From an uncultured Ignavibacteriota bacterium (GTDB lineage Bacteria; Bacteroidota; Ignavibacteria; UBA10030; UBA8401): a stretch of 64,000 nucleotides of DNA. The stretch is from positions 1 to 64,000 of the forward strand of contig CAIOTF010000051.1 in assembly GCA_903861125.1 (NCBI GenBank), given 5' to 3'. The notes under the pieces are model-generated. The model saw only the letters and a list, made by a program, of their open reading frames with translations. It did no database searches and was not told the DNA's origin. How positions within the stretch are numbered: position 1 is the stretch's first letter; the number at the start of each line of letters is the position of its first letter. Shown here piece after piece: positions 226 through 55,839 of the stretch. The position numbers and the translations under genes were made by a program.

Positions 226-256
226 GCGCCCGTTCCGAAAAATTCGAAACGGGCGT
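226..256. terminator. Bidirectional intrinsic terminator
   Basis: A stem of about 13 pairs (with one mismatch and a G-T closing pair) and a 3-base loop lies between two convergent genes. T-rich tracts follow on both strands, so it can terminate the plus-strand gene at the left edge and the pgsBCW operon on the minus strand. Confidence 0.8.
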
Positions 257-285: not shown

Positions 286-1341
286 CTATTTTCTTTCCGG
301 TGTATCTATTTTCACATTCCGCAGAAAAATTACGACCGCAACGAGAGCAAACAAAAAACAACTTAACACCCATCTATTGGGTGTTTGAGCTGTGTACAGT
401 GTATTGTTTGAAGTATGGGAATCAGATATTCCGTATTTCAAACCAAGATCCGTAATGTTGAGAAAGTGAATAATCGGGATTCCCGTTTCATGTATTCGGG
501 CGATCGCACCGCGGTCACTATGTACGCATATTTGCAGGGAACGGTGCAAACCGTTCGGCAGTGACGAGGCATGCACACAATTACCAAGCATTGCATGATT
601 GCCGCCGATATTGATCAGCAGTTTTATCCGGTGACGTGTCGCGATCTCTACACGTTTGCGTATTGCTTCTTCCAGTGATGCCGGAACCCAGAGTATTGTG
701 TTATTTCGTAATGCCGCTGAATCAACTTCTTCCCTACCACCGTCAAAAAATCCTTCGCCGTTATCGTTATCGCAGCCATAGGTCACAAGTTCGGATATGT
801 ACCGTAAACCTCCTTGCGCGAATAAAATATTTTCTATATCCAATATTGTCATTGCCGGTTGATTTGCACCGAATGATGATGCACCGACAGAAGTGACCAG
901 CACTGTCCGCTGATTTAATGTCTGCAGTGCGGCAAGTGTTGAAACCGCAATACCCGGAAACGAACCGGACGAAGCAACCATCACTTCGTCGGTGGAATCA
1001 AGTCCAAGTTCAGTGATCCAGCGGACGACAAGTGCGGCGATCTGCGGATTCACCGATATTTTTTTGGCTTCAAGTGCTCCAAGCGTCGTCGTCATCTCCG
1101 ATAATTCATCGCCGAGCATTGCCTCGGCAGGAAAATGATGTGCTTCGGCAGAAATGAGATGACGTGCTTCCTTTTCCTTTTGAATAATCTGCATCCATGC
1201 AGCCGCGCGCGCTGTTGCCTGCTTCATTATTTCGGAATTCTTTGCCGGACTATCGGCAGTAAAAAAGGTTTGTGAAATGACAACAAGAGTGATTGCGGCA
1301 ACGAAAGTTAAAAAGAATTGTATGTCCCGCGGCTTTTTCAC
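286..1341 (-). CDS. pgsW: Poly-gamma-glutamate system protein PgsW
   Basis: About 351 residues, matching the family annotated as poly-gamma-glutamate system protein (PgsW), a membrane-associated partner of PgsB/PgsC whose exact role is not settled. The N-terminus has a positively charged start (KKPRD) and one hydrophobic helix at residues 7-23. A second hydrophobic helix (about 324-342) lies near the C-terminus before a charged tail, so the central domain is probably outside the cytoplasm. I place the start at GTG 1341, five bases past the pgsC stop; the longer open frame to 1425 begins with TTG and would overlap pgsC by 80 bases. Third gene of pgsB-pgsC-pgsW, with a terminator directly downstream. 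Confidence 0.82.
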   Translation of the reverse strand: MKKPRDIQFFLTFVAAITLVVISQTFFTADSPAKNSEIMKQATARAAAWMQIIQKEKEARHLISAEAHHFPAEAMLGDELSEMTTTLGALEAKKISVNPQIAALVVRWITELGLDSTDEVMVASSGSFPGIAVSTLAALQTLNQRTVLVTSVGASSFGANQPAMTILDIENILFAQGGLRYISELVTYGCDNDNGEGFFDGGREEVDSAALRNNTILWVPASLEEAIRKRVEIATRHRIKLLINIGGNHAMLGNCVHASSLPNGLHRSLQICVHSDRGAIARIHETGIPIIHFLNITDLGLKYGISDSHTSNNTLYTAQTPNRWVLSCFLFALVAVVIFLRNVKIDTPERK

Positions 1342-1345
1342 GGCG

Positions 1346-1783
1346 TCACACGTACTGTTGAAGGATCGTAACGACAAAGAATACAATCGCAGTGACGATA
1401 CCGAGCGCGGAGATGGTCGGCACAAAACGCTGACGGGACATCTCGTTTGCTATCAGTCCGGGAATGATATACCCGATCGATTGAATATCAAAAGGAAACT
1501 GCTGCAGAGGCTGAATCCATTGTTCAATAAGGATCTTCAGGGAGAAACTGAGCAACAATGAAAGCAGCAGTTTTCGCCTGCCATAAACGATGAGATTTCG
1601 AGACAAAAGTTCCAGTATTCCCCACACGACAAGAGCAATAAGGATCGTCATAACAATCTTGTTCGGCTGATGAATAAATAATGCGAAATATCCGGGAGCA
1701 ATCACTCCGCCGGGCGAAACTCCGGTCAATTCGTAAAAGATAAATCCGATGATAAGTCCGATGAATAATGTTTCGATGACCAT
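1346..1783 (-). CDS. pgsC: Poly-gamma-glutamate biosynthesis membrane protein PgsC/CapC
   Basis: 145 residues, very hydrophobic, with about four to five membrane helices. The length and the N-terminal GLIIGFIFYELTGVSPGGVI segment are typical of PgsC/CapC, the small integral membrane subunit of the PGA synthase. In the Bacillus systems PgsB and PgsC together form the polymerising core at the inner face of the membrane. ATG at 1783 lies two bases after the pgsB stop, so the two genes are translationally coupled. No frameshift or truncation is visible. Family identity is firm; activity in this organism is inferred. Confidence 0.9.
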   Translation of the reverse strand: MVIETLFIGLIIGFIFYELTGVSPGGVIAPGYFALFIHQPNKIVMTILIALVVWGILELLSRNLIVYGRRKLLLSLLLSFSLKILIEQWIQPLQQFPFDIQSIGYIIPGLIANEMSRQRFVPTISALGIVTAIVFFVVTILQQYV

Positions 1784-1785
1784 TG

Positions 1786-2922
1786 TTATGCCGCATCTTT
1801 CATGGTGAAATATTTAATAACTGAAAATCCATCCCCGGCAATGTTGCCGAAACCAAAAATATCCGTTTCGGACCGTACTACTTCGCTCAGGTTGCCCGAA
1901 AGTTCCTCCACGCCGACACGACTGTAGAGGGAACCGGCGAGTGGTGTTTTCTTCAACGCTCGTAACGCATAGGAGGCATGAGTTCCTGTTATGAAACAAT
2001 GATGAAGATCCTTCACCGACGCACACCAATGCACAAATTCCAAAGTACGTAACGGACGATCGTTGCGGGTGTTAAGTATGATGATCGTTTTTTTTCTCCT
2101 GTTTCCGTCACTCCACCGATCAATGAACCGTTCTGCCGATGGAACATCGTTCACCGCAAATCCGTTGATAAACCGTACTGGGTATCCATTAATCGTTGTT
2201 TCAATACATGCCTTCTGTGAGCCGAGATTCTTTATCGCCGTAAATGCCGTATCCGCATTGATTCCGCAATGGGACGCAACGGCAAGCGCCAGGGAAACAT
2301 TTGCAGCAAACATTCCTGCCGGCAATTGCGCTGATAATACCGCATCGAGAGGAGGAACGACATGAACGGATGTTCCGCGTTCTTCGGCTAAGCGCTTCAG
2401 CAGATCAATCTGTTCCATGTCGACGGTAAAAACAAGAGAGTGATACGGAAGGCTTGCGGCAATCGATTCGACATGTTCCTGATGAGAGATTCCCATTTCT
2501 TCGCGATGATCGTCTTCGATATTTGTGATTACGGAGACGTTGGGACGGAAGATTCTTGATTCCAACTGCTGATATTCCGGTTTCAGCGACATGCATTCCA
2601 GCACCAGGGCATCGGCCCGTTGTGCAAACGCATGTGAAATGACCGAGAACTGTTCCTGAACTCTTGCCTTGCCCCATCGTTTGATCGGCTGTGATGAGCC
2701 GTTGGTACAATATAATGTCGGAATGACTCCGGTAATTTTTACGGCCGTCTTCACCGAAGCAGCGGACAATGCCGCGCCGATGTACCGTGCTACGCTCGAT
2801 TTGCCGCGCGTACCGTTTACATGAATCCGGTACCGAATACTGCCGGCACGGCGGGCGATGACGATCCGCTCAGCGATGAGGAATACAAGCGATGCGATTG
2901 TTATGGCAAGAACAATATTCAA
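1786..2922 (-). CDS. pgsB: Poly-gamma-glutamate synthase PgsB/CapB (Mur-ligase family)
   Basis: About 378 residues. An N-terminal membrane anchor (residues 3-17) is followed by the nucleotide-binding loop NGTRGKSS at 36-43, the PgsB version of the Mur-ligase P-loop, and by TNIEDDHREEMG, also typical of the family. PgsB is an amide ligase that uses ATP to activate the growing chain and add glutamate through its gamma-carboxyl. Length is close to Bacillus PgsB (~390). The start appears to be TTG at 2922, preceded by AAAGAG eight bases upstream; no in-frame ATG fits the anchor. First gene of pgsBCW. No pgsA/capA follows in the window, which is unusual against the Bacillus pgsBCA layout. Confidence 0.9.
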   Translation of the reverse strand: MNIVLAITIASLVFLIAERIVIARRAGSIRYRIHVNGTRGKSSVARYIGAALSAASVKTAVKITGVIPTLYCTNGSSQPIKRWGKARVQEQFSVISHAFAQRADALVLECMSLKPEYQQLESRIFRPNVSVITNIEDDHREEMGISHQEHVESIAASLPYHSLVFTVDMEQIDLLKRLAEERGTSVHVVPPLDAVLSAQLPAGMFAANVSLALAVASHCGINADTAFTAIKNLGSQKACIETTINGYPVRFINGFAVNDVPSAERFIDRWSDGNRRKKTIIILNTRNDRPLRTLEFVHWCASVKDLHHCFITGTHASYALRALKKTPLAGSLYSRVGVEELSGNLSEVVRSETDIFGFGNIAGDGFSVIKYFTMKDAA

Positions 2923-3005
2923 TGATTACTCTTTAAATAATTTCCGCTTCACCGTTATTGCTCCAAACGAGTGAAAGGCATTATGTGATGCGATAACATA
3001 CAAAA

Positions 3006-3037
3006 AAGTCACACGTCAAATCAATGGCGTGTGACTT
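3006..3037 (-). terminator. Intrinsic terminator after the gamma-glutamyltransferase gene
   Basis: A perfect 10-bp stem (AAGTCACACG / CGTGTGACTT) with a 12-base loop is followed on the minus strand by a run of six T. It separates ggt transcription from pgsBCW. Confidence 0.88.
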
Positions 3038-3076
3038 AAGGAAATTGAATTTCACAATCCGGGTTATTGAGCGGTA

Positions 3077-5068
3077 TTAATCACCGATCGCTGCACCGCC
3101 GCGGCGTGGATCAGCCGAACCATAAAACGTATGTGTTGCCGGGTCGATCATGATGATTTGTGCGCCGCCGAAGAAGAGATCAAACTCACCATGCTCGCGC
3201 AGGTTATGTCCTTTTTTCTTTAACCCGTCTATCACATCGGGACTAAACCGCGATTCATAATGAAGATATTCATCAAATTTCTGGCAGAAGAACCGGGGTG
3301 CCTTATTGTTCTCCCCGGCATCCATTCCAAAGTCAACGGCATTAACGATCAGCTGGATAATGGTGGCGGTGATGCGTCCGGCTCCGGGTGAGCCGACGGA
3401 CATAAACGGATTTCCATCTTTCAGTATGATCGTCGGCGAGATGGAACTCCGCGGCCGCTTGTTCGGTTCGATGGAATTGATCGCCGATGTTGTCGAAAAA
3501 TTGGAGAGCGAGCCGTTCATCATCACTCCGGCAACGGACAATCCGGAACCAAAAAATGTGCCGAGCGTTTGCGTTAGTGAAACAATATTACCGGATTTAT
3601 CCGCAACAGAAAGATGCGTTGTATGTCCGTCCCCTTCCAGCAGCGGCGGTTCTGCCAATTCAGCATTGAGAGCAAAATAATGTTCGGGATCGCGAAGAGT
3701 CTGTGACGATTCGATCTCCTGTTTTTCCGGTTCGTCTTTGTCTTTTACCTTGAAGTCAGGTGTTTCGTCTTTCCCTTCTTCTTTCACATCACCGGAAGAT
3801 TCGTCACTGCTGGCTTTCTTCTTTTTTCCCCAGTTATCGAAAGGATCTTCATCTTTTTTATATGAGCGTTCATCATCAACATCATCGCGTTCTTTTAGGG
3901 ATTGTTTTTTTTCTGCCGGTGCAACTGATCGTTTCACAGCTTTTGAATCATACGGAAGCGGGTTCCCGACTTTGGTTTTCCGGTAATCGTTCGGTTCCGC
4001 AGAAGCCATATTGATATCGTTGTACCGCACCGCTGCAAAATCCTTTGAGATCAATCCATTGGTCGGAACGTATGCGAAACGGGGATCCTGTATGAATGCC
4101 GTTCTGTCCGCATATACACGGCGCATTGTTTCGGCCATGAGATGCGTAGTATTAACGGAAGTAGAAAAATGACCCATTTTTGTAATGCTGGCGTTTTCCA
4201 GCATATTCATTGCTTGAATGATGGCGGCACCGGATTGCGGAGCGCCGGCAGAGAGAATCTCATAACCGCGGTATGTGCCGCGTACCGGTTCATCGATGAT
4301 GACCTCATAATTTTTAAGATCATCCATTGTTATCATGCCGCCATTTTCGGTAACACCTTTCACAATTTCCTCGGCGACCGGACCTTCATAAAATCCTTTT
4401 CGGCCCTGCTGCGCTATCGTCCGAAGCGTTTGCGCCAACTCCGGCTGTTTTAATATTTCCCCTTGTTGAATGGGAAATCCTTCCGGCAGATAGATCTTTG
4501 CTGTTGAAGGGTATTTAGATAACAGTTCATTATTATCAAGAATAATGCTCGATAATGTCTCGTCCAAAGGAAATCCTTCTTCGGCATATTTAATCGCCGG
4601 TTCGAGCACTACCATCAGCGGAAGGGTCCCGTATTTTTCCAATGCCGCGGTCAATCCCGCAACATTTCCAGGAACAAGGATCGTCTTTGCAGATTTATTA
4701 TCGCTTGCAGGATTATAATTCACCTCATTGATCTTTTCGGAAGCCTGCTGATAATAGTTGATGAAAATGGATTTCTTTTCTTTTTGGAGATAGATCACCA
4801 TTGCACCTCCTCCGCCGAGACCGGAGCCGTCCGATTCCACAACGCCGATCGCAAACGCCGCTGCAACAGCGGCATCGACAGCGTTGCCTCCGCGCTGGAG
4901 CATTTCCATCGCCGCTTTTGAAGCGAGCGGATGAGCTGTGGTTGCCATACCGTCTTTGCCGACGGCAACATCACCTTTGGATGCGACGCCGCCGGTTTGC
5001 GACAGCAGAAGAGATGAAACAATGACAAGTGAAAAAAAGAGGCGATAGATAAATCTTGAATATCTCAT
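3077..5068 (-). CDS. ggt: Exported gamma-glutamyltransferase with charged linker insert
   Basis: 663 residues, longer than the usual ~570-580. N-terminal signal peptide (about 1-25), then the large-subunit domain (GGNAVDAAVAAAFAIGVVE) and a small-subunit domain starting at the catalytic threonine T483 in GDGHTTHLSVADKSGN. Family members self-cleave before this Thr and transfer or hydrolyse gamma-glutamyl groups. GSPGAGRITATIIQ and RSSISPT are conserved. Two substrate-pocket motifs differ: the usual D-x-R-E-x-A-P region reads NYYQQASEKI, and the usual NNEMDDF region reads MNGSLSNF. An extra, very charged stretch (about residues 380-455, rich in Lys/Asp/Glu) lies just before the cleavage site. 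Next to pgsBCW but with its own terminator. It could act like CapD (PGA cleavage or anchoring) rather than on glutathione; that is inference. Confidence 0.9.
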   Translation of the reverse strand: MRYSRFIYRLFFSLVIVSSLLLSQTGGVASKGDVAVGKDGMATTAHPLASKAAMEMLQRGGNAVDAAVAAAFAIGVVESDGSGLGGGGAMVIYLQKEKKSIFINYYQQASEKINEVNYNPASDNKSAKTILVPGNVAGLTAALEKYGTLPLMVVLEPAIKYAEEGFPLDETLSSIILDNNELLSKYPSTAKIYLPEGFPIQQGEILKQPELAQTLRTIAQQGRKGFYEGPVAEEIVKGVTENGGMITMDDLKNYEVIIDEPVRGTYRGYEILSAGAPQSGAAIIQAMNMLENASITKMGHFSTSVNTTHLMAETMRRVYADRTAFIQDPRFAYVPTNGLISKDFAAVRYNDINMASAEPNDYRKTKVGNPLPYDSKAVKRSVAPAEKKQSLKERDDVDDERSYKKDEDPFDNWGKKKKASSDESSGDVKEEGKDETPDFKVKDKDEPEKQEIESSQTLRDPEHYFALNAELAEPPLLEGDGHTTHLSVADKSGNIVSLTQTLGTFFGSGLSVAGVMMNGSLSNFSTTSAINSIEPNKRPRSSISPTIILKDGNPFMSVGSPGAGRITATIIQLIVNAVDFGMDAGENNKAPRFFCQKFDEYLHYESRFSPDVIDGLKKKGHNLREHGEFDLFFGGAQIIMIDPATHTFYGSADPRRGGAAIGD

Positions 5069-5126
5069 ATTGGTAATGTAAGTAGAGTTGCAAAAATAGT
5101 TTCTTCACATTTGAAGTAACACAGCA

Positions 5127-5684
5127 TCAGTTCTTAACAAATGAACCTTCCAGCAGTTTTGCCGCATCGACGATCTTATCCACAAGGTCGATCCCGATCT
5201 TTTTTGCCGAGGCAATATCGGAAAAGAAATTGTCTTCGTTCCCCTGTTTCACAACTATCATATGCATTGATACTTCGGCACATAATCTGTTAAAGTCATC
5301 CGATTGCAGTCCGCGGCGCGGTTTGCCGCCGATGTGAAGGAGAAAGATTTTCATTTTTTGTTTTTGTGCTGCGGCGATCACTTCTTTTACGCGGTCCATT
5401 TCCTGTTCACGGCTGATCCCTGCAGCACCAAGTCCTTTGGAACTGAAACCGGGAACGATGATGACGGTCTTAACATCTTTTACATCAGCTGCCGTTGCAC
5501 GGTTAACGGTTTTTGCGTTCAAGCCAACTTTTTTGCACAACATTGCCGCCATGGTGACATCGGCGCTTTGACCGGCGGAAGTGATGAGGATGGGCTGTTC
5601 GCATTTTTCCTTTGATTGCGGAAAAAGCGGATACGCCAGTGATGCCATAAGGACGAGCAGAGTAAAAGAGCGGAAGAGTTTCAT
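5127..5684 (-). CDS. Secreted DUF6305-like protein, PGA-locus associated
   Basis: 185 residues with a cleavable signal peptide (about 1-23, ending near LFPQS). The mature part contains VIIVPGFSSKGLGAAGI, then LLHIGGKPRRGLQSDDFN, then a C-terminal region with VVKQGNEDNFFSDIASAKK. I recognise this as the style of the DUF6305 family, which I recall near poly-gamma-glutamate or TRAP genes; its biochemical role is unknown to me. The start is supported by AGGAG about ten bases upstream of ATG 5684. It sits between ggt and a desuccinylase-like gene in the same direction. A decayed homologue lies at 25574-25837. Confidence 0.75.
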   Translation of the reverse strand: MKLFRSFTLLVLMASLAYPLFPQSKEKCEQPILITSAGQSADVTMAAMLCKKVGLNAKTVNRATAADVKDVKTVIIVPGFSSKGLGAAGISREQEMDRVKEVIAAAQKQKMKIFLLHIGGKPRRGLQSDDFNRLCAEVSMHMIVVKQGNEDNFFSDIASAKKIGIDLVDKIVDAAKLLEGSFVKN

Positions 5685-5722
5685 GTGATATTTCTCCTGT
5701 TGTAAAATGAATAATTGTTAGT

Positions 5723-6841
5723 CTATTTCAAAAAATTGCCAACACCGCGATCAAGAACTGCCTGATATTCGGGAATATTCTCCACCGTGGCCGTGTTTTC
5801 CGGATGTTGTTCGTTGTATGCATTCACCAGTGTACGAAATCCCTGCACATGCCGCGCGACCCGAAGCGAAAGCGGTTCGCCGTTCAGCTCGTAGGTGATG
5901 CGGACATTCCCCAGTTGAGCCGCTGTTTTGTAGAACGAATCGTTTCCTGCAAGGATCAAATGTTCGTTCGTTACGCCGCGCAATCGGCCCTGAATCGGAT
6001 TGCTGGTTTCCATCAGGAACGGATAGACGTCGGTTGAATCGCCCCATTCGCGGTGGCTCAATCCGTGAAAATTTTTTGGGGATATTTCAAGTGAATATTT
6101 TAAATCTTCAAATTCCAGATTCAGAACGGCATTTGCTGCAATCTCGTTCCCTTTTTCGTGTGTGATGATTGCGTTGATAATCATCACTTCCGGCGCCGCC
6201 TCGTGCAGATCGAAAGCAATGCTCACCTTTTCTTTTTTGATCAGCTGAAGAAAAGCGTAACCGTTCCGCTCCATGAACGATCCGTCAGCCTTCCCCGGAT
6301 ATGAGCGGTTCAAATTTCTGCTCTCCATGCCGGACAATTGTTGTCCCGACGGGAAATGCCGGTACACCAGCGGATCGGGCCATTGATGAAGCGGATTTCC
6401 ACCGCGCGAGCCGAAGCGGAATGTACGGTTTCCGCTTTTCGTTGAAATTGTAAAATGTGTCGGACAGCCTTCAAGCGGATCGGTTGCCGTAAATCCGCTG
6501 GCACACGCCTGCGGGATAACGATCAATCTTCCTTTGGTCATCCGCGCATTTTCCACCAGCACCGCAGCCGCCATAAATCCGGCGGATTCATTCGGATGTG
6601 TGCCGCCGAGAAGCAGAATGGTTGCTCCGGGATTTCCGCTGTCAAAATAATAGACCGGGGTGTCTCCGCTTGTTCCTTTAATTGCTGCAAAGTAGTCGCT
6701 CAGCATCCCTTGTTTCGTCAACGACGGTGACGGGTAGAGCACATCCGGCTGATACATCGAGAGAAAATCTTTCGACGCAATAGCAGAAAAGACCAAAGCA
6801 AAAAACAAGAATAGCATTGCGGTATAATGATGTCGCTGCAT
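5723..6841 (-). CDS. Exported succinylglutamate desuccinylase/aspartoacylase-like zinc hydrolase
   Basis: 372 residues with an N-terminal hydrophobic export signal (about 8-22). The zinc site of the M14-related AstE/ASPA fold is visible: GGTHPNESAG with H82 and E85, and the later metal His in FDLHEAAPE near residue 215. RNLNRSYPG supplies the usual substrate-binding arginines. The family removes acyl groups from acidic amino acids or cleaves C-terminal residues. Export and the PGA-gene context suggest a role on glutamyl compounds outside the cytoplasm; that part is inference. The gene begins one base after the stop of the small membrane protein gene, so it is in one operon with it and the TRAP permease. 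Confidence 0.82.
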   Translation of the reverse strand: MQRHHYTAMLFLFFALVFSAIASKDFLSMYQPDVLYPSPSLTKQGMLSDYFAAIKGTSGDTPVYYFDSGNPGATILLLGGTHPNESAGFMAAAVLVENARMTKGRLIVIPQACASGFTATDPLEGCPTHFTISTKSGNRTFRFGSRGGNPLHQWPDPLVYRHFPSGQQLSGMESRNLNRSYPGKADGSFMERNGYAFLQLIKKEKVSIAFDLHEAAPEVMIINAIITHEKGNEIAANAVLNLEFEDLKYSLEISPKNFHGLSHREWGDSTDVYPFLMETSNPIQGRLRGVTNEHLILAGNDSFYKTAAQLGNVRITYELNGEPLSLRVARHVQGFRTLVNAYNEQHPENTATVENIPEYQAVLDRGVGNFLK

Positions 6842-6842
6842 A

Positions 6843-6989
6843 TTATTTTATATGAAATATTCTCAGTAAAAGGGGGATCAGGATAATAACCATTGCAAGC
6901 TGATGGCGCCAGCTTTTTTCACGGAACAATTCGGTAAGAACGATCGCCGCAATGACCGCTGCAATAATTATGTAAAGATAGAACAGCAT
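6843..6989 (-). CDS. Small two-helix membrane protein between permease and hydrolase genes
   Basis: 48 residues (MLFYLYIIIAAVIAAIVL at the N-terminus, a charged turn TELFREKSWRHQ, then MVIILIPLLLRIFHIK). Two membrane helices separated by a short basic loop. GGAG lies seven bases upstream of ATG 6989 and overlaps the permease stop; the stop codon is one base from the next gene's start, so position and ribosome site both support a real gene. Function unknown. It is too small for a normal DctQ subunit but could be an accessory of the adjacent TRAP-type permease. Confidence 0.72.
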   Translation of the reverse strand: MLFYLYIIIAAVIAAIVLTELFREKSWRHQLAMVIILIPLLLRIFHIK

Positions 6990-6999
6990 TCTGTTTCTC

Positions 7000-8268
7000 C
7001 TACTTTAAAAATGAACCGATATCGGCAGCGAAAATAATTGTTACGATTCCAAAAAGCAGCGCAAGAAGAATAGGAACAGCCGCTGCTTTTAATATGGTAA
7101 AGTGATTTTTTATTCCGAGCATCTGGGCAGCAAAGACGCACAACAGCGACGGCGGCGGCATAAGATCACCGATTCCTGCGATCAACGAAAGAGCCGAGGT
7201 TACAACAATCTCATTTCTTCCAAGGAAGACAAAGACCAGCGGAACGCCGATCACCGATGATGCTGCATAGGCGGAACCCATAGCAGGCATAATAAGTGCA
7301 ATACCGAGATACAGTAGTTCCGGCGGAAGCTGCAACGCGCTTACGGCAAGATATCCGCGAACACCGGTTAGCGTCATGATCTGCACAAACATTCCGACGC
7401 CGACAAGAATACCAAGGACCGGAAGCGCTTCGCGAATTGCCAGCTGCGATACTTTTACAACTTCAACTTTCTCCCCTGTCCGTATGCCGATCACGGCACC
7501 AATCATAAAAATCAACGGTATGCCGATATCGGGAACAAGATCCGGAGCAATTCGAATGCCCGCCATCAATCCGATCACCACGATCAGCGGAAGGAAGAGA
7601 ATCACTCCATGCTTAGCGTACACTGACGGCGGCAATTTTTCGAGGATCTCGTTCACGTCAATCTTCCGGATGTACCGGAACCGGAAATAAAGCGCCGTTA
7701 CGATTGCAAGCGGGAAGGTCATAAAGATAAGCGGTTTTTCGAACCCAACGTACGGCATATCAACACCGCCGCCGATGATCATCACGGGAATATTGATCGG
7801 CGGTGCAATCATCCCGAATACCGCCATCATTGCAATGAATGCACCGACTGAGACGGCCGGAATTCCCATTCCAACAAGCGCAGGAGCAACCAGTGCTCCG
7901 GTCGTAAGAATGCATGCTGACGATAATCCGGTCATCATTCCCGGGAACATCACAAAGAATGCAACAAGGATCATTAATAGCGTAGGGTAACGGTATAATG
8001 ATTTGATCATAGCATAGCTGATTGTGCCAAGCGCTCCGGTTGCTTCGACCACTTTCATAAAGATCATTGCCGTTGCGATGATCAGAACTGCATCCAGATA
8101 TCCGAACATTCCTTCCACAAGATGGCGCACCGGAACACCTTGTCCCGCCACAAGTGCGCCGACCACGGAGGCCGCCGCCATTGCCAGGCCGGAAGGAAGT
8201 TTCAGCCAAAACACTCCGCCGGCAAAGACAGCAAGCATGGAAAGTAAAATGATCAGTTCTAATGGCAT
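7000..8268 (-). CDS. TRAP-type large permease (DctM-like)
   Basis: 422 residues with about 10-12 membrane helices, matching the large (DctM) subunit of TRAP transporters in length and in GMMTGLSSACILTTGALVAP and MIAPPINIPVMIIGG. These secondary transporters take up carboxylates, including acidic amino acids, using a sodium gradient. No solute-binding protein (DctP) and no normal DctQ gene accompany it; the next gene is a 48-residue two-helix protein. Transcribed with the desuccinylase-like gene, so a glutamate-type substrate is plausible but inferred. No frame disruption seen. Confidence 0.8.
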   Translation of the reverse strand: MPLELIILLSMLAVFAGGVFWLKLPSGLAMAAASVVGALVAGQGVPVRHLVEGMFGYLDAVLIIATAMIFMKVVEATGALGTISYAMIKSLYRYPTLLMILVAFFVMFPGMMTGLSSACILTTGALVAPALVGMGIPAVSVGAFIAMMAVFGMIAPPINIPVMIIGGGVDMPYVGFEKPLIFMTFPLAIVTALYFRFRYIRKIDVNEILEKLPPSVYAKHGVILFLPLIVVIGLMAGIRIAPDLVPDIGIPLIFMIGAVIGIRTGEKVEVVKVSQLAIREALPVLGILVGVGMFVQIMTLTGVRGYLAVSALQLPPELLYLGIALIMPAMGSAYAASSVIGVPLVFVFLGRNEIVVTSALSLIAGIGDLMPPPSLLCVFAAQMLGIKNHFTILKAAAVPILLALLFGIVTIIFAADIGSFLK

Positions 8269-8387
8269 AGTATAATTTTATGAAAATGGATTATTGACGT
8301 AACAGTTGTTTGGGAGATATTCAATAGTTGGAAACAATCTTAAACTTTGGATATTGAGGAACAAGAAGAGTATGGACACAGTCGTTG

Positions 8388-9293
8388 TTAATTCAATCTC
8401 TCCGTAAATTTTTCACCACAATGAATGTTGAGATATTCAATAATCACGCTTACGAGCAGTTTTGCAGTAGATTCGAAATGGTCCTGTGACCGTAATTCCG
8501 GATTTAGTTCAAACTGCACGCCAAATATTTCCGTCGTATCTTCTGCGGCATGACGGAAGATCGTATAACCGCCGGAAAAGAATTTGTACGATTTCGGCGC
8601 AGGATCGGATGGACTCGGCGTTGAACGGACGCCATATGTATCGAACAGAGCTCCAAGACTATTTTTACCATGGATCAGTTCGGCGTGAGAATACGCGGAT
8701 ATTTTCACAAGATTCTTCAGACTGCTTTTTTCAATGTATTCCTTTGAATTCAAATCGGCATCAGGCATGGCTAATTCGTCGCTTTCCAGCCGGTACCCGA
8801 TTTCGATCCGTTGTTCAGGGTGATTCTGTCCGTGCAGATCAATCAAAAAACCTTTTCCGAACGATCTCCGTGCGGAGGCCTGGGCCGAATCAATGAATCC
8901 ATGATAATCGTTCCACGCGGTCAGTGCGGCGGTATTTTCCTGAGCTGCTTCAAATTCTTCCCGGTTCACATCAAGTTTCCTGCGCACCAGGTGAGAGAAG
9001 ATAACATGGGGTGACTTGCCGGTCCGGCCCATGAATTCCGTAATCATCTCGCGTGCTACTTCCTGCGTGCCATTATCTCTTGCGTTCACGCCGAATGTTC
9101 TATCCGAAATAATTTCCGGTTTCAAACTTCCGCCATGCGGAACAGAAATAATGATCGGTAAATTACCCGCAACGTATTCAACAAAGTGATTCTTTCCCCA
9201 ATATGAATTTCCCGGAACAAAGTCCGAGGATTGTGGAAAGGCACACTCAATAAAAATAAAAACCGATAACAGCAGAGAATAAATTTTCTTCAT
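8388..9293 (-). CDS. Exported N-formylglutamate amidohydrolase-like zinc hydrolase (copy 1)
   Basis: 301 residues. A signal peptide (about 1-20) precedes a domain with the N-formylglutamate amidohydrolase (FGase) pattern: IISVPHGGS (H53), RKLDVNRE near 105 and LIDLHGQNH near 150. These supply the metal-binding and carboxylate-binding residues. Classical HutG-type FGase is cytoplasmic and ends histidine breakdown; the signal peptide and the PGA genes downstream suggest another N-acyl or gamma-glutamyl substrate here. A paralogue with the same motifs lies at 20180-21130. The gap upstream carries the terminator of the preceding gene. Confidence 0.82.
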   Translation of the reverse strand: MKKIYSLLLSVFIFIECAFPQSSDFVPGNSYWGKNHFVEYVAGNLPIIISVPHGGSLKPEIISDRTFGVNARDNGTQEVAREMITEFMGRTGKSPHVIFSHLVRRKLDVNREEFEAAQENTAALTAWNDYHGFIDSAQASARRSFGKGFLIDLHGQNHPEQRIEIGYRLESDELAMPDADLNSKEYIEKSSLKNLVKISAYSHAELIHGKNSLGALFDTYGVRSTPSPSDPAPKSYKFFSGGYTIFRHAAEDTTEIFGVQFELNPELRSQDHFESTAKLLVSVIIEYLNIHCGEKFTERLN

Positions 9294-9302
9294 ATAAAAA
9301 CA

Positions 9303-9329
9303 AGAGGACGTTTCATGGAAACGTCCTCT
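9303..9329 (-). terminator. Strong hairpin terminator after cassette A cargo gene
   Basis: A perfect 11-12 bp stem (GAGGACGTTTC / GAAACGTCCTC) with a 3-base loop lies just past the stop of the gene ending at 9341. TTGTTTTTAT follows on the minus strand. Confidence 0.88.
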
Positions 9330-9340
9330 CTCATCAAGAA

Positions 9341-13079: not shown

Positions 13080-14102
13080 TTATAACGATGCACTCAGCGT
13101 AAACTGTTGCACCGATCCAAGAATTCCAAACACCGCGTAACCATAATCAAATGAGAATGATGTGCTCCCCATAGGAATATTCAATCCGGCTCCCAGCGTT
13201 AACCCCTCTTCATCAGTTTGAAACACATAACCGCCGCGCACGGCAAATGTTTCCGCAAACCGGTACTCCCCGCCGATGCTGTAATGTTCGGGATTGTCAT
13301 TTAAATGAACGGCATCGAGCGCAAGAATAAATTGTGAATTTTCTAACTGCACCAACCCTTCATTACCGATGAGCGATAGCGATGTTGACACGCGATACGA
13401 TGTGGGCAATCCCCATTCCTGCGTCTGAACAGCTGTTTCAACATAAGGATTCATGGTACTGTTAGGATCTTGATCAACCTGGCGGATCAGTTCACGGCCG
13501 GACATTTTCAGATCGGGACCAAAATTCTGGAATGACAGTCCAATCTTCATATCCTTGAACCCTGTCGTGAGAATCGCGCCAAGATCAACGGCAAATGTCT
13601 CGGCAGATTCGTTCCATATCCGTTGGTTGATATACTTGACGGTTGCGCCAATGTGCACATTCTCCGTCATTGCGCGTGCGTATGACACTCCAACCGCAAA
13701 ATCCAATGCATCAAAATACGTTCCGGTTCCTTCGGGAAGTTCAATGGTCGTCTGTTCGATCTTATTTGTTTGCAGGGCAATGGCGCTGATACCAAACGTG
13801 CCTATTTCTCCGGCAGGGACAACAATTCCAAGAAAACTATGTGCCAATCCCGCTATCCATGTTGAATGCGAAACGGTACCCTGAATTTTATCCATGGACG
13901 TTATTCCGGAAGGATTCCAGTAGAGCGATGTAGCATCGTCAACAAGAGATGTGTATGCATAGGCCATACCAGTAGCTTTTGCACCAACGGGAATCTTTAA
14001 AAACTGAGCGGCCGAGGTCCCTGCTTTTGAAAAATCCTGTGCCGTAAGATTCAAAGATAACAGATTGACGCACATGAAAATGCCGGTGATTATTTTTTTC
14101 AT
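13080..14102 (-). CDS. PorV/PorQ-family outer membrane protein (cassette A)
   Basis: 340 residues with signal peptide (1-21) and a FadL-like beta-barrel: FSKAGTSAAQFLKIPVGAKA at the start of the mature protein, SLYWNPSGI, and a C-terminal amphipathic strand. This is the PorV/PorQ family pattern. PorV shuttles T9SS cargo to the attachment complex on the cell surface. GGAGG lies seven bases upstream of ATG 14102. The gene follows the 992-residue protein gene by 14 bases. Its homologue in cassette B (54803-55828) has the same neighbours, so this may be a cassette-dedicated version rather than the general PorV. Confidence 0.85.
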   Translation of the reverse strand: MKKIITGIFMCVNLLSLNLTAQDFSKAGTSAAQFLKIPVGAKATGMAYAYTSLVDDATSLYWNPSGITSMDKIQGTVSHSTWIAGLAHSFLGIVVPAGEIGTFGISAIALQTNKIEQTTIELPEGTGTYFDALDFAVGVSYARAMTENVHIGATVKYINQRIWNESAETFAVDLGAILTTGFKDMKIGLSFQNFGPDLKMSGRELIRQVDQDPNSTMNPYVETAVQTQEWGLPTSYRVSTSLSLIGNEGLVQLENSQFILALDAVHLNDNPEHYSIGGEYRFAETFAVRGGYVFQTDEEGLTLGAGLNIPMGSTSFSFDYGYAVFGILGSVQQFTLSASL

Positions 14103-14116
14103 TCGTGAACCTCCGA

Positions 14117-17095: not shown

Positions 17096-17125
17096 GATCT
17101 TTATTTCTCCTGGTTGGTCGTGTGA

Positions 17126-20179: not shown

Positions 20180-21130
20180 TTAATTGATTTTATTGGAAAT
20201 CCGGCGTTCATATTCATGAAGATATTCTATAAACACTTCTGCCGCCGTTTCGGCAAAGGCCTTCCAATTTTTTTCTTCGTCTCTCATTCCATCAATATAT
20301 GTTTCGAGCTGAACTCCTCCGAGCAGCCCGCCGCCAGCAGAACTATGGCGCTCCAGATTATATCCTCCGCTAAAATACGGTGTGCGACCCGGTGTCGGTT
20401 GTCTGGGACTGGGCACGGCAGGGATACTGTGTTTTTCAAATAACGCACCGATACTTTTCGGACCGCGGATCGTTTCGCTTAGCGACAGATGTTGTTGTAT
20501 AGCAAGTAATTCAACACTACTCGTAGAAAGAAGTTTTTGTGCATCTAAAGAATCATTATTCATTCCCAACTGTAATCCCACAAGAAGATATCCTAGTTCC
20601 AACTGCTGAATCTTATGTCTGTGCCCGTGTAGATCAATGTACAATCCAAATCCAAAAGATCTCCACACGGATGTTTCTGCCGAGTCGATAAATTGATGAA
20701 ACTCTTTGTATGCACTAAACGCCGAAGGATCGTCCTGTGTCGCATCAAATTCTTCACGGTTCGCATCCAGCTTATTCCGATGCAACCGATTGATAATGCA
20801 ATGAGGATATTTTCCTGTTCGCCGAAAGACCGCTTCGACCACCGCGCGGGCTAGTTCCTGCGTGTTAGCATCGTAGTGTCCTTTTGTGCCGAGTTCCCTA
20901 TTTGTGATTTCGTCCGGTTCCAAATGACCGCCGTGAGGAACGGAAATTACGAGAGGCATATTTCCGGCTATGTACTCGATGAAATTCTTTTCGCCAAAAT
21001 ATGACCGGCCTGCTACGTATGCAGAATCGGCCGAGATAACAGTTTGGAGGGTAAAGAGGAGGAATGCCAGAATGCCATTCCGATATGAAATGAATGAAGT
21101 GTGAAAGCTGGGACAATTGAATTGTTTCAT
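20180..21130 (-). CDS. Exported N-formylglutamate amidohydrolase-like zinc hydrolase (copy 2)
   Basis: About 316 residues from the ATG at 21130; an upstream ATG at 21151 is possible. The N-terminus has an export signal. The same motif set as the copy at 8388-9293 is present: VISVPHGGH, RNKLDANREEFDATQ and YIDLHGHRHK, plus the later FSGGYNLERH. The two copies are aligned through most of their length, so they are paralogues. It follows the Ntn hydrolase gene by 36-57 bases. Substrate not known; an acylated or gamma-linked glutamate is suggested by family and by the genes next to copy 1. Confidence 0.8.
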   Translation of the reverse strand: MKQFNCPSFHTSFISYRNGILAFLLFTLQTVISADSAYVAGRSYFGEKNFIEYIAGNMPLVISVPHGGHLEPDEITNRELGTKGHYDANTQELARAVVEAVFRRTGKYPHCIINRLHRNKLDANREEFDATQDDPSAFSAYKEFHQFIDSAETSVWRSFGFGLYIDLHGHRHKIQQLELGYLLVGLQLGMNNDSLDAQKLLSTSSVELLAIQQHLSLSETIRGPKSIGALFEKHSIPAVPSPRQPTPGRTPYFSGGYNLERHSSAGGGLLGGVQLETYIDGMRDEEKNWKAFAETAAEVFIEYLHEYERRISNKIN

Positions 21131-21186
21131 GAAATAGAAATAACAAAACATTAATACCGATTACGACGAGTAAGTTATTTCGCCAA

Positions 21187-32548: not shown

Positions 32549-33747
32549 TTGATCAGTACCATCCTTATTGTTCGTATGTATGAAGTTGTTTTTATATTAC
32601 AAAAATATATTCCGGACGAATATTGTTCTGCGTTGAATTGGACGGAATGGAATCCGCGCGCTGTATGATCGTTCATCAGGAGGTTGATCTCTTTTCCCCA
32701 TAGATCGTACACCGACAGCCGCACCCATTCATCGCTCGGGATGTAAAATTGGATCGTCGTCGAAGGATTGAACGGATTCGGATAATTGTTGAGCAATTCA
32801 AAATTTATTGCGGCAGCATTATTTTTTCTTTCAACCGACGTTTGAGGTGTGAATGTTTCACAGATCGCATCGATTGACAATAATTGTTTTGATAGGGTCG
32901 TTCGCAGCGGATAATCATGCTCAATGTGAACAAATAACTGCCCGTTGCTGTTCGACCATTGACCTTGTTTATTCGTCGTAGCGCCGAGATTTCCCAATTG
33001 CATAAAAGTCGATGCACTGAACACTCCCGCCGTAAATCCTTTCGATTCATATTTTGTTTCAAGTGTCGAGAGAATTGAAGGGGGATTCAGCGTTCCATTA
33101 CTGATGACAACATCGGGATATCCGGCATTACTTCCCGATTTGCTGAATCCATGGATCTGCACTGCTTTCGATGTTCCCGAGCGTTTATGAGCGACATAAA
33201 ACACGGATTGCGTAACGTGTGCCATGTCCGATGACGAATCGGCATTGCAGTAGCGGTGCGTTCCCGCCAGAATAAACCATTTCGAATCCGCTTTAATAAA
33301 TAACCTGATCGCCAATTCCCATGAATTGGTATCCCACAGGGGATGCGGGGTTTCAATCGTCAAATCATTCGCAGCGGCAGGATCGAAAATATACGTTCCC
33401 CAGCCGCGCAACACGGGAATATTTTCTTTTAGTATATACAGGGTGTCATTCGTTGCCGTATTCACGAACTGAATAAATTGATATCCGTACAGTGATGCCC
33501 GTGCTGAAATGGTCAAGAAATTTTTCTTCTTGAGATCTATGAACAACGTGTCAAAATAATTAAGATGAGCGTTGGTAGGAATAAAAAATTTATTGGTTCC
33601 TATATCCGGCATCGCGTCCTTGATTGTTTTGATGAACTGAACAATGTCACCGGACATCAAGGACTGCGACCGTAACGGAGTCGCAACGCTCATTAGTAAG
33701 CTGAGTATCATACAATATTGGAGTACTATTTTGCTCTTCTTCATCAC
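32545..33747 (-). CDS. T9SS cargo, possible metallohydrolase of an unnamed family
   Basis: 400 residues: signal peptide (about 1-28), a domain of about 270 residues, and a T9SS sorting domain (NYPNPFNPST core). The domain has a chain of conserved-looking polar motifs, PHPLWDTNSWELA, AGTHRYCNADSSSDMAH, VQIHGFSK, DVVISNGT, LGATTNKQGQ and VHIEHDYPLR, laid out like an enzyme with metal or phosphate ligands. The His/Asp/Glu pattern recalls N-formylglutamate or PGA-hydrolase-type enzymes, but I cannot assign it. It overlaps the racemase gene upstream and the lipoprotein gene downstream by four bases each. Confidence 0.65.
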   Translation of the reverse strand: MMKKSKIVLQYCMILSLLMSVATPLRSQSLMSGDIVQFIKTIKDAMPDIGTNKFFIPTNAHLNYFDTLFIDLKKKNFLTISARASLYGYQFIQFVNTATNDTLYILKENIPVLRGWGTYIFDPAAANDLTIETPHPLWDTNSWELAIRLFIKADSKWFILAGTHRYCNADSSSDMAHVTQSVFYVAHKRSGTSKAVQIHGFSKSGSNAGYPDVVISNGTLNPPSILSTLETKYESKGFTAGVFSASTFMQLGNLGATTNKQGQWSNSNGQLFVHIEHDYPLRTTLSKQLLSIDAICETFTPQTSVERKNNAAAINFELLNNYPNPFNPSTTIQFYIPSDEWVRLSVYDLWGKEINLLMNDHTARGFHSVQFNAEQYSSGIYFCNIKTTSYIRTIRMVLIK

Positions 33748-35070: not shown

Positions 35071-36615
35071 ATGAAAACCATCGGCGTATCTAAAAAGACC
35101 ATCATTATTTTCGCGACAATTCTTGTCATCATCGGAATTTCGGCATACGGCGCAAGCATTTTCCTTAACCGATGGACTGATGAAATTATTCAGACGAACA
35201 CGGAGCTAACACGGGAAACAGTCAGAAAGATCATGACCGCTTCAGTATCGGTCATTGATAGTCTTGAACAGCAGAATTTCTTTTCACGCGAGACCCTGTC
35301 AAAAAAAGAGTGGCGGACTATTGATAATCTTTTTTCCGCGATTACGGCAAGCCAGGCACACTCCGTTGTCGGGATGGAAGGGGGATTTTATTTTGTCTCA
35401 TTCGACGAAATGATCGGCTATTCGTGGCCAACGGCACCGGATCCCGCGCCGGCGTACGGACCTGCTCCCCGCTCGTACCCAATCATCAAATCTCAGATCA
35501 TAAAATCCATTCATCTGCGTAAGTCGTTATTGGAATTTCATTCATTCGATTTTGCTGTTTTTCCGTTGGCAACCGAACCAATTATTATCCGCAACAGAAT
35601 TGTCGGCGGAACGTGGGCACGCATTCATGTTGAACGGGAACTTCCGTCGAGCAAATTAATGCACATATTGAACATTGCTGCAATCGTAGCCATTGGTGCT
35701 CTCGGTGCCGCAATGATCCTGCTCTGGTTCCGCCGAAGACACGTCAATGCCATCCGCGCAGGTCTCGATCTGGTAAAACTTGATCCGTCATACCGTCTTC
35801 CCTTGGAATCAGGCGTCTATGGCGCGATCGCAGCATCGATCAATTCAATGGTCGATGCATTGATTCAGGAGCAGCACATACGAGAACAATTGGAACGGAA
35901 TCTCCATCAGCAGGATAAAATGGCGACGCTCGGGAAATTGATTGCCGGTGTTGCACACGAAGTAAAAACTCCGCTGGCAATTATTAAAACTCGTATTCAG
36001 ATGTGGCAGCGCGATCTTCAGCAGGAAAAACCCGAAGGCGAATTGCGAACAACCGTCTCCGATGATTCAATGGAACTGGTCGTCAAGGAAATCAACCGTC
36101 TTTCCAATCTGGTGAAACGCCTGCTGGTCTTTGCAAAGCCGACACAAAATAAATTCCAAAAACATAACATCAACGATGTTGTCCGGCAGACGGCATTGAT
36201 CATTCAAGTGGAAGCGGAAAACAAACATATTTCTGTCATCATGGAGTGTGCAGAGAATCTTCCGCTGCTTGAATTCGATCATCAGGCAATGGAGCAGGTG
36301 TGCATCAATCTGTGTGTGAACGCCGTGGAATCGATGCAGGAGAACGGCACACTGACGATCTCAACATGGATCAGCGATGATGGTGGATCGGCCTTTGTTC
36401 AATTCAAAGATACCGGCAAAGGAATACCGGAAGAACTGCGGCAGAAGATCTTCGATCCGTTCTTTACAACAAAAGAGCATGGCGTCGGTCTCGGACTTTC
36501 CATCTCATACGAAATCGTGAAAGCACACGGCGGAAAGATCGAATTCATTCCGACCGAAGGAGAAGGAGCTACCTGCCGCATTACTTTGCCAACTCAGATA
36601 AAAGGAAAAAAATAA
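35071..36615 (+). CDS. Membrane sensor histidine kinase (NtrB/AtoS type)
   Basis: 514 residues. First membrane helix at 9-28, an extracytoplasmic sensor of about 170 residues with a Pro/Ala-rich loop (PTAPDPAPAYGPAPRS), second helix near 205-225, HAMP-like linker, HisKA with phosphorylatable H296 in GVAHEVKTPLA, and an HATPase domain with N-box CINLCVNAVE, G1 DTGKGIPE, F-box FDPFFTTK and G2 GVGLGLSIS. It should phosphorylate the response regulator encoded four bases downstream. The signal is unknown; the surroundings suggest a peptide or glutamyl compound. Only plus-strand pair among minus-strand operons. Confidence 0.92.
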   Translation: MKTIGVSKKTIIIFATILVIIGISAYGASIFLNRWTDEIIQTNTELTRETVRKIMTASVSVIDSLEQQNFFSRETLSKKEWRTIDNLFSAITASQAHSVVGMEGGFYFVSFDEMIGYSWPTAPDPAPAYGPAPRSYPIIKSQIIKSIHLRKSLLEFHSFDFAVFPLATEPIIIRNRIVGGTWARIHVERELPSSKLMHILNIAAIVAIGALGAAMILLWFRRRHVNAIRAGLDLVKLDPSYRLPLESGVYGAIAASINSMVDALIQEQHIREQLERNLHQQDKMATLGKLIAGVAHEVKTPLAIIKTRIQMWQRDLQQEKPEGELRTTVSDDSMELVVKEINRLSNLVKRLLVFAKPTQNKFQKHNINDVVRQTALIIQVEAENKHISVIMECAENLPLLEFDHQAMEQVCINLCVNAVESMQENGTLTISTWISDDGGSAFVQFKDTGKGIPEELRQKIFDPFFTTKEHGVGLGLSISYEIVKAHGGKIEFIPTEGEGATCRITLPTQIKGKK

Positions 36616-36619
36616 CTCC

Positions 36620-38002
36620 ATGAAAGAGAAAAGAACTATTCTTGTTGTTGATGATGAAGCATCCATGCGGACCAACGTTGTCGAATTATTATCGCGCGAA
36701 GGATATTCAGTATTTGAGGCGTCCGACGGAGCAGAGGCATTGAAGGCTATAAAATCGCATTCGCTGAATCTTGTACTGCTTGATATTAATCTGCCGAAGA
36801 TCGACGGCATTACGGCATTGAAAGAGATCAAGAAGGATTTTGCCGACCTTCCTGTTATTGTCTTTACGGCATACGGCACCAGCGAGCGAGCCATTGAAGC
36901 AATGAAAGCAGGCGCGTACGATTATCTCGACAAGCCGTTCGAACTGGACGAATTCCTTCTAATTGTACGGCGGGCATTAACGTTTGGCGACCTCCTCGGC
37001 GAAGTGAAGCAATTGCGCTCCACAGTCTCTAACAACACACAGCTTTCCGCAACAAGTCAGCTTGTCGGTATCAGCCAAAAATCGCAGGAGATCTTCAAGT
37101 TGATCGGCCGCGCAGCTCCGAGCGAAGCAACCGTTCTAATCCAGGGTGAAAGCGGTACGGGAAAAGAGCTCATCGCCGATGCAATTCAGCGGCACTCGTT
37201 GCGCAAAGAAAAACCGTTCATTAAAGTTGATTGCGGCGGATTAACGGAAACCTTGCTGGAAAGTGAATTGTTCGGGCACGAAAAGGGATCTTTTACCGGT
37301 GCTGTTTCACAGCGCAAGGGACGGTTCGAGCTGGCAGACGGCGGAACGATTCTGCTGGACGAAGTGAACAATATGACACCGGGGCTGCAGATGAAACTGC
37401 TGCGCGTACTGCAGCAAAAGACATTTGAACGAGTCGGCGGAAAAGATACCCATACCGTTGACGTGCGCATCATCGCCGCCACCAACAAAAATCTTGAAGA
37501 TGAAATGAAGGCCGGACGCTTCCGTCAGGATCTATTCTACCGCCTCAACGTAATTCATATTGTTATTCCTCCCCTGCGTGACCGGCCGGAAGATATACCT
37601 GTGCTTGTTGACCATTATTTGAAGCGGATTAAACCAACAGAAAAGATTATTGTTCCGGACGAATCGTTGACAAAACTTATGGCCTATTCCTGGCCCGGCA
37701 ATGTTCGTGAGTTGGAGAATGTTATCCAACGCGCACTCGTTATGACACATGGAAGCGTGATCACGATCGATCACGTGCCGTTCTCTGCTCAGCCCGTGAC
37801 CGGGAATACCGGCGGGAACAATGTGCTGCAGGAAGGATTCAATTTGAAATCGTATCTAACAGCCATGGAAAAGAATTTGATCGTGGAAGCGCTGGAAAAA
37901 ACAAATTGGAACCGGACCTTAACAGCGAAGATGTTGAATATTAACCGGCGATTGCTCTTTTCAAAAATGCTTTTCTACAATCTCAATCGAAAAAAGATGT
38001 AG
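36620..38002 (+). CDS. NtrC-family sigma-54-dependent response regulator
   Basis: 460 residues. Receiver domain (about 5-120) with phospho-acceptor D55 in LVLLDINLPK; AAA+ sigma-54 interaction domain (about 145-385) with Walker A GESGTGKE, the sigma-54 contact loop GSFTGA (a normal variant of GAFTGA) and Walker B GGTILLDE; C-terminal Fis-type helix-turn-helix (about 415-455). It would activate sigma-54 promoters when phosphorylated by the upstream kinase. Several candidate sigma-54 sites lie in this window, including one just before the kinase gene, which would allow autoregulation. Confidence 0.93.
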   Translation: MKEKRTILVVDDEASMRTNVVELLSREGYSVFEASDGAEALKAIKSHSLNLVLLDINLPKIDGITALKEIKKDFADLPVIVFTAYGTSERAIEAMKAGAYDYLDKPFELDEFLLIVRRALTFGDLLGEVKQLRSTVSNNTQLSATSQLVGISQKSQEIFKLIGRAAPSEATVLIQGESGTGKELIADAIQRHSLRKEKPFIKVDCGGLTETLLESELFGHEKGSFTGAVSQRKGRFELADGGTILLDEVNNMTPGLQMKLLRVLQQKTFERVGGKDTHTVDVRIIAATNKNLEDEMKAGRFRQDLFYRLNVIHIVIPPLRDRPEDIPVLVDHYLKRIKPTEKIIVPDESLTKLMAYSWPGNVRELENVIQRALVMTHGSVITIDHVPFSAQPVTGNTGGNNVLQEGFNLKSYLTAMEKNLIVEALEKTNWNRTLTAKMLNINRRLLFSKMLFYNLNRKKM

Positions 38003-55828: not shown

Positions 55829-55839
55829 TTTTTCTCCAA

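What the first reader, a model, noticed from the sequence alone, without database searches (positions are those of the whole stretch)
286..9293. Poly-gamma-glutamate island without PgsA, joined to exported glutamyl-processing genes and a TRAP permease
pgsB, pgsC and pgsW are clear by motif and order, but no pgsA/capA is seen. Next to them in the same direction lie GGT, a DUF6305-like protein, an exported desuccinylase-like zinc enzyme, a 48-residue membrane protein, a DctM-type permease and an exported FGase-like enzyme. Together they look like a make, cut and re-import cycle for a gamma-glutamyl polymer. This is an unusual setting in a Gram-negative T9SS organism.
Basis: partly seen in the sequence, partly recalled or inferred. 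Interest (0 to 1): 0.78.

Follow-up and report, generated by a model that had tools for sequence, protein, structure and literature searches.

The report
Poly-glutamate make, cut, re-import operon
A nine-gene operon in an Ignavibacteria-like bacterium joins the genes that make a glutamate polymer to genes that look built to cut it up outside the cytoplasm and bring glutamate back; most of the set recurs in three gene orders and in a second phylum, so it is a real, apparently undescribed variant of a known capsule system, though no activity has been shown.

Summary
Window 286-9293 (minus strand) carries FGase-like, DctM, a 48-aa membrane protein, exported AstE-like, DUF6305, GGT, pgsB, pgsC, pgsW, bracketed by two strong terminators. 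The neighbours are not chance: DUF6305 occurs in 22 of 391 genomes of the class and 19 of these have PgsW (Fisher p 5e-19). DctM/48-aa/AstE/DUF6305/pgsBCW persist in three gene orders, one in Cetobacterium (Fusobacteriota). FGase is linked more loosely. The GGT lacks the lid loop, like Bacillus GGTs that digest poly-gamma-glutamate. A CapA-family gene exists elsewhere in this genome, but four relatives with pgsBCW have none, so PgsW probably replaces PgsA. DctM has neither DctP nor DctQ beside it; three carriers have no DctP at all. A make, cut and re-import cycle for a gamma-glutamyl polymer is the best reading; no product or activity has been shown. New variant of a known kind.

The parts
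227..255 (-). intrinsic terminator after pgsW
   Evidence: 13-pair hairpin + U tract, -21.6 kcal/mol, z -5.7
286..1341 (-). pgsW: membrane-anchored protein with extracytoplasmic alpha/beta domain between two TM helices; probable stand-in for PgsA
   Evidence: TIGR04332 257 bits vs cut-off 100; start corrected; weak AF2 model pLDDT 60
1346..1783 (-). pgsC, PGA synthase membrane subunit
   Evidence: TIGR04011 and PF14102 over cut-off
1786..2922 (-). pgsB, PGA synthase ATP-dependent ligase (GTRGKS loop)
   Evidence: TIGR04012 254 bits vs 222.7
3077..5068 (-). exported gamma-glutamyltransferase, lid-loop negative, catalytic Thr483
   Evidence: PF01019, TIGR00066; 11-residue lid gap against E. coli GGT and in all 13 cluster GGTs
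5127..5684 (-). DUF6305, exported Rossmann-like protein of unknown role
   Evidence: PF19823 161 bits; AF2 pLDDT 69
5723..6841 (-). membrane-anchored/exported AstE/AspA-like zinc amidohydrolase
   Evidence: PF24827 30.6 vs 25 bits; H82, E85, H213, NxNR 176-179, E278 near-invariant in 17 sequences
6843..6989 (-). 48-aa two-TM membrane protein, beside DctM
   Evidence: hmmsearch finds it in 25 places across the module loci; pN/pS 0.10-0.42
7000..8268 (-). DctM-like permease without DctP/DctQ
   Evidence: PF06808 25.3 vs 23.8 bits; no DctP at all in G144, G212, G152
8388..9293 (-). exported FGase-like protein
   Evidence: PF05013 E 1e-5, below cut-off; recurs at varying positions
9302..9330 (-). 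intrinsic terminator of the preceding gene, upstream limit of the unit
   Evidence: 13-pair hairpin + U tract, z -5.8
20180..21151 (-). second exported FGase-like protein
   Evidence: PF05013 31.6 vs 28.9 bits; its homologue lies downstream of pgsW and the C45-like gene in L022
21187..22860 (-). C45-like Ntn hydrolase with T9SS sorting tail
   Evidence: NF040521 44 bits, under its cut-off; PF18962 tail; directly after pgsW in L022
29425..30702 (-). outer-membrane porin-like protein; homologue adjacent to DctM in L022 and L034, upstream of it in L063 and L065
   Evidence: weak NF033939
33744..34757 (-). exported glutamate-racemase-like protein
   Evidence: TIGR00067 E 2e-14; both Cys kept in 14 sequences; in 16 of 17 genomes with a Type I module
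35071..36615 (+). sensor histidine kinase, divergent from the racemase
   Evidence: PF02518, PF00512; conserved arrangement in nine genomes
36620..38002 (+). NtrC/AtoC-type sigma-54 response regulator
   Evidence: PF00158, PF00072

Best explanation
The operon runs an extracytoplasmic cycle of a gamma-glutamyl polymer, most likely poly-gamma-glutamate. PgsB with PgsC joins glutamate at the inner membrane, and PgsW takes the part PgsA has in Bacillus, helping assembly or passage across the membrane. In the periplasm the lid-less GGT removes glutamate from the amino end, and the AstE-like zinc enzyme (with the FGase-like protein) cuts the N-acyl-glutamate bond at the carboxyl end. The exported racemase-like protein interconverts D- and L-glutamate. 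DctM, with the 48-residue protein in the place of DctQ, brings glutamate or short oligomers back. DUF6305 is an extracytoplasmic partner that binds polymer, glutamate, PgsW or DctM. The porin and the surface (T9SS) hydrolase suggest that material outside the outer membrane is used too, and the HK/NtrC pair suggests nitrogen or carboxylate control, so the likely purpose is a reversible carbon and nitrogen store, or control of chain length. Shown: gene content, intactness, key residues, operon limits, conservation and co-occurrence. Inferred: every enzymatic step, substrate, localisation and purpose.
For: Family assignments over cut-off for PgsB, PgsC, PgsW, GGT, DUF6305. Co-occurrence of DUF6305 with PgsW 19/22 vs 2.1 expected, p 5e-19. 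Same genes in three orders, incl. Cetobacterium; partner and pgs divergence correlated, r 0.79-0.88. GGT lacks the lid loop as PGA-hydrolysing Bacillus GGTs do (PMC8062742). Zinc and racemase residues kept. Exported racemase linked to the module. Operon bracketed by terminators. Four pgsBCW genomes have no CapA-family protein.
Against: Half of the PgsW genomes lack the partners and a few loci have the partners without adjacent pgsBCW (G152 has no PgsW at all). Type II clusters lack the GGT. The racemase also occurs in six genomes of the phylum sample without DUF6305. No polymer or activity tested. In Francisella, where a locus of this sort is named capBCA, no PGA capsule has been tied to it (PMC4688374).
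Confidence: 0.5

Rival explanations
1. Two systems side by side: a salvage system for gamma-glutamyl compounds from outside (PGA of other bacteria, glutathione, gamma-glutamyl peptides) made of porin, surface and periplasmic hydrolases, racemase and DctM, and a separate pgsBCW that makes a capsule or periplasmic polymer. They share regulation but do not form a cycle.
For: Module without pgsBCW in L034 (G152), L059 and the first module of L057; porin next to DctM and a T9SS-tailed hydrolase imply an outside substrate; pgsBCW alone in L013-L018.
Against: Full linkage of the two halves in three different orders and two phyla and correlated divergence are hard to explain if they are unrelated.
Confidence: 0.27
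2. PgsBCW here does not make a long polymer: it ligates glutamate to another acceptor (a lipid, small peptide or metabolite) and the GGT/AstE/DctM set matures or recycles that conjugate, gamma-PGA being a wrong label.
For: No PgsA; PgsW unrelated to CapA by profile; PgsB and PgsC only 36-64% alike among module loci; the Francisella capBCA locus without a detected PGA capsule (PMC4688374).
Against: PgsB and PgsC pass equivalog cut-offs; lid-less GGT fits a bulky polymer; F. nucleatum with homologous genes is reported to make polyglutamate (cited in PMC3815933).
Confidence: 0.15
3. Chance neighbourhood: pgsBCW happens to lie beside unrelated exported enzymes and a permease.
For: The FGase-like gene is not constant, and some pgsBCW loci lack the rest.
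Against: Cross-phylum conservation of seven genes including a 48-codon one, in three orders, p 5e-19.
Confidence: 0.03

Closest known systems
Bacillus pgsBCA(E) with pgdS and ggt (gamma-PGA synthesis, later use as nitrogen source; PMC4497714, PMC8062742)
   Same: PgsB and PgsC of the same equivalog families; a secreted lid-less GGT that can act on polymer
   Different: PgsW instead of PgsA; GGT inside the operon; AstE-like, DUF6305, 48-aa protein, DctM and exported racemase have no counterpart there
Bacillus anthracis capBCADE (named only, from PMC4497714)
   Same: synthase genes next to a GGT-family gene (capD)
   Different: no CapA in the locus; the GGT here groups by residues with hydrolysing Bacillus GGTs; no sign of a wall anchor; added uptake genes
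NCBIfam TIGR04332 pgsBCW loci, incl. plain ones in L013-L018 and the Cetobacterium locus
   Same: pgsB-pgsC-pgsW order
   Different: plain ones lack all partners and carry an exported protein plus an outer-membrane barrel instead; Cetobacterium has the same partners in another order
TRAP transporters (DctPQM)
   Same: DctM-like large permease
   Different: no DctP and no DctQ in the locus; a 48-residue two-TM protein beside it; three carriers have no DctP gene at all
Glutamate racemase MurI
   Same: both catalytic cysteine motifs (ACNT, CTH)
   Different: signal peptide, only 26-32% like cytosolic MurI, well under the family cut-off

Membership tests
gamma-PGA synthetase PgsBCA | PgsB ligase of TIGR04012 | tested here: met
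   254 vs 222.7 bits
gamma-PGA synthetase PgsBCA | PgsC of TIGR04011 | tested here: met
   123 vs 96.45 bits
gamma-PGA synthetase PgsBCA | PgsA/CapA (PF09587) in the locus | tested here: not met
   none in the cluster; one unlinked copy in the genome; four pgsBCW genomes have none
gamma-PGA synthetase PgsBCA | gamma-linked glutamate polymer is made | not testable with these tools
   needs chemistry
pgsBCW system (TIGR04332) | PgsW over cut-off, next to pgsB and pgsC | tested here: met
   257 vs 100 bits; order
PGA-hydrolysing GGT (lid-loop negative) | GGT family with catalytic Thr and no lid loop | tested here: met
PGA-hydrolysing GGT (lid-loop negative) | activity on gamma-PGA | not testable with these tools
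   needs assay
AstE/AspA amidohydrolases | zinc ligands HxxE...H, NxNR and catalytic Glu | tested here: met
   H82, E85, H213, N176, N178, R179, E278 near-invariant in 17; alignment to DoeB and relatives
TRAP transporter | DctM large subunit | tested here: met
   25.3 vs 23.8 bits, narrow
TRAP transporter | DctP and DctQ with it | tested here: not met
   none recurrent in the loci; no DctP in G144, G212, G152
glutamate racemase (MurI) | both catalytic cysteines | tested here: met
   ACNT and C-T/S-H kept in 14 of 14
glutamate racemase (MurI) | TIGR00067 equivalog cut-off | tested here: not met
   53.9 vs 146.65 bits
N-formylglutamate amidohydrolase (PF05013) | score over Pfam cut-off | tested here: inconclusive
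   8388-9293: 25.8 vs 28.9; paralogue 20180-21151: 31.6

The most novel reading that the evidence does not exclude
A self-contained extracytoplasmic glutamate-polymer cycle in Gram-negative bacteria: a PgsA-free PgsBCW synthase, hydrolases for both chain ends, an exported MurI-like glutamate racemase, and a TRAP-derived permease that works without DctP and with a 48-residue stand-in for DctQ, run by an NtrC-type regulator as a reversible nitrogen and carbon store.
Probability: 0.3. Interest if true: 0.78.

Novelty: new variant of a known kind. Interest (0 to 1): 0.63.

Why it matters
What pgsBC genes do in Gram-negatives is unsettled: the Francisella capBCA locus matters for virulence, yet no PGA capsule has been tied to it (PMC4688374). 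A cross-phylum set that links PgsBCW to hydrolases, a permease and a racemase gives a concrete role to test, places DUF6305 and a 48-residue membrane protein in a pathway, and points to a possible periplasmic MurI-like glutamate racemase. If the polymer is found, it would be a nitrogen store kept outside the cytoplasm.

Tried and rejected
Chance neighbourhood: rejected for the core by co-occurrence and re-ordering. PgsW as a distant PgsA: profile comparison with the genome's CapA-family protein gave nothing (one sequence on that side, so weak). PgsW and DUF6305 as relatives of each other: hhalign 17% probability, not accepted. Structures: only sequences from the window and loci of the search for related loci were allowed in the alignment, so models were weak (PgsW pLDDT 60, DUF6305 69); fold searches gave only generic Rossmann-like matches, which I do not use. 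Viral-contig scans for PgsW and DUF6305 found no relatives. The genome-contig scan with PgsC alone found two close relatives; an alignment would have been a better query. Sigma-54 promoters: no consistent site before DctM or the racemase; a good match 25-32 bases before the histidine kinase in five loci, but so close to the start codon that I give it little weight. No Rfam family in the window. Plasmid searches with DUF6305, PgsW and AstE gave Cetobacterium only.
Full report
WHAT IS THERE. The reported interval is real. Nine intact genes run on the minus strand from 9293 to 286: FGase-like, DctM, a 48-codon gene, AstE-like, DUF6305, GGT, pgsB, pgsC, pgsW. PgsB, PgsC and PgsW pass the NCBIfam cut-offs of their own families; GGT, DUF6305, AstE-like and DctM pass Pfam cut-offs, the last two narrowly; FGase-like is slightly below its cut-off. 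PgsW should start at the GTG at 1341, four bases after the pgsC stop, not at 1425. Gaps between the genes are 1 to 154 bases, and two 13-pair hairpins with U tracts, after pgsW and before the FGase gene, bracket the interval, so it reads as one transcription unit.

THE MISSING PgsA. The genome has one CapA-family gene (PF09587), on another contig, beside a dehydrogenase-like, a TPR and a thioesterase-like gene (the neighbours are named from their sequences by eye). That family is common (7 of 14 control genomes), so its presence says little. More telling, four of the pgsBCW genomes tested (G224, G383, G168, G251) have no PF09587 match at all. PgsW shows no similarity to the genome's CapA-family protein. 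PgsW therefore probably fills the PgsA role with a different protein.

IS IT A UNIT? In 391 genomes of the class, DUF6305 is over cut-off in 22 and PgsW in 38; 19 genomes have both, 2.1 expected, Fisher p 5e-19 (the genomes are related to each other, so the p-value is only a guide). Of the three exceptions, two (G407, G567) have contigs that end inside the cluster; only G152 truly seems to lack PgsW. Mapping shows three orders. Type I, as in the window: DctM, sp48, AstE, DUF6305, GGT, pgsB, pgsC, pgsW, in twelve complete loci of several families. Type II: pgsB, pgsC, pgsW, DUF6305, DctM, sp48, AstE, without GGT, in six genomes of one family (one locus is cut off by its contig end). Third: in Cetobacterium somerae (Fusobacteriota) GGT, DUF6305, DctM, 47-aa protein, AstE, pgsB, pgsC, pgsW. 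Divergence of pgs proteins and partner proteins is correlated (r 0.79-0.88, 0 of 5000 permutations; common descent contributes), and the Type I locus of G224 is nearer to Type I loci of other families than to Type II loci of its own family, for pgs and partner genes alike, so the cassette seems to be inherited as a whole. The 48-codon gene is a gene: found in 25 places across the module loci, with pN/pS of 0.10 to 0.42.

Recurrent neighbours in relatives led to more members in the window. An exported glutamate-racemase-like protein with both catalytic cysteines is at 33744-34757; it is in 16 of 17 genomes with a Type I module and in none of seven other pgsBCW genomes tested, and in the phylum sample it goes with DUF6305 (5 of 6; p 1.5e-7), though six genomes have it without. 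In G152 it follows the 48-codon gene directly. Divergent from it in nine genomes are a histidine kinase and an NtrC/AtoC-type regulator (35071-38002 here). In G240 the whole row lies together: NtrC, HK, racemase, sorting-tail protein, beta-propeller, porin, DctM, sp48, AstE, DUF6305, GGT, pgsB, pgsC, pgsW, C45-like hydrolase, FGase-like. In the window the same genes are split by about 20 kb. Cetobacterium also has a two-component pair next to its cluster.

HOW IT PROBABLY WORKS. The GGT keeps the catalytic threonine and lacks the lid loop, as do all 13 cluster GGTs aligned, while two GGTs near plain pgsBCW loci have it. Lid-less GGTs are the ones tied to PGA hydrolysis, and Bacillus uses PGA as a late nitrogen source (PMC8062742). 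The AstE-like protein keeps its zinc site; its relatives release an amino acid from an N-acyl amino acid, and gamma-Glu-Glu is chemically an N-acyl-glutamate, so removal of the carboxyl-terminal residue is plausible (inference). A polymer with D-glutamate would call for a racemase (inference), and one with a signal peptide is there. DctM then re-imports glutamate (inference); no DctP or DctQ recurs beside it, and three carriers have no DctP gene. DUF6305 is predicted as a Rossmann-like domain without a specific relative. The likely purpose is a reversible store under nitrogen or carboxylate control; this is the weakest part.

LIMITS. No product, activity or expression was tested. pgsBCW exists without the partners in half of the PgsW genomes; the six such loci read in detail are followed by an unknown exported protein and an outer-membrane barrel. 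The partners exist without pgsBCW in a few. That allows the rival view of a salvage system beside a separate capsule system. Spread outside the window's phylum is shown for one further organism only. The literature searched does not describe the accessory set, but the library holds open papers only.

VERDICT. A real, conserved, apparently undescribed variant of the pgs/cap theme; interesting and directly testable, not a new kind of biology by itself.

Noticed in passing
L013-L018 (for example L013:6653-11456): pgsBCW loci without the module are followed by a ~310-aa exported protein with no Pfam match and a predicted outer-membrane barrel: a possible route for the polymer across the outer membrane.
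   Followed up: partly
L069:12644-14425 (also L057, L059, L071, L073): A signal-bearing C69-family Ntn hydrolase follows AstE in Type II clusters, where the GGT is missing; it may replace it.
   Followed up: partly
window 33744-34757; L136, L137, L138, L139, L140, L141: Exported MurI-like racemase family also occurs without the module, in L136 and L127 beside a C45-like hydrolase.
   Followed up: partly
window 35043-35058, upstream of the histidine kinase: Sigma-54-like site (TGGCACAATCTTCGCT) 28 bases before the start codon, similar in four relatives; too near the start to be sure.
   Followed up: partly
window 3077-5068, about residues 370-480 of GGT: A long charged, lysine/aspartate-rich insert of roughly 100 residues precedes the catalytic threonine; its length differs among relatives.
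   Followed up: no
window 13080-19822 and 54806-61479: A PorV-like / large T9SS-type protein / TonB-type receptor triplet is present twice in the window (50-54% identical); the first copy sits beside the cluster here and in several relatives.
   Followed up: no
L025:418-5099 (Cetobacterium plasmid): A second, divergent GGT and a split chromate-transporter pair lie next to the two-component genes and the cluster.
   Followed up: no
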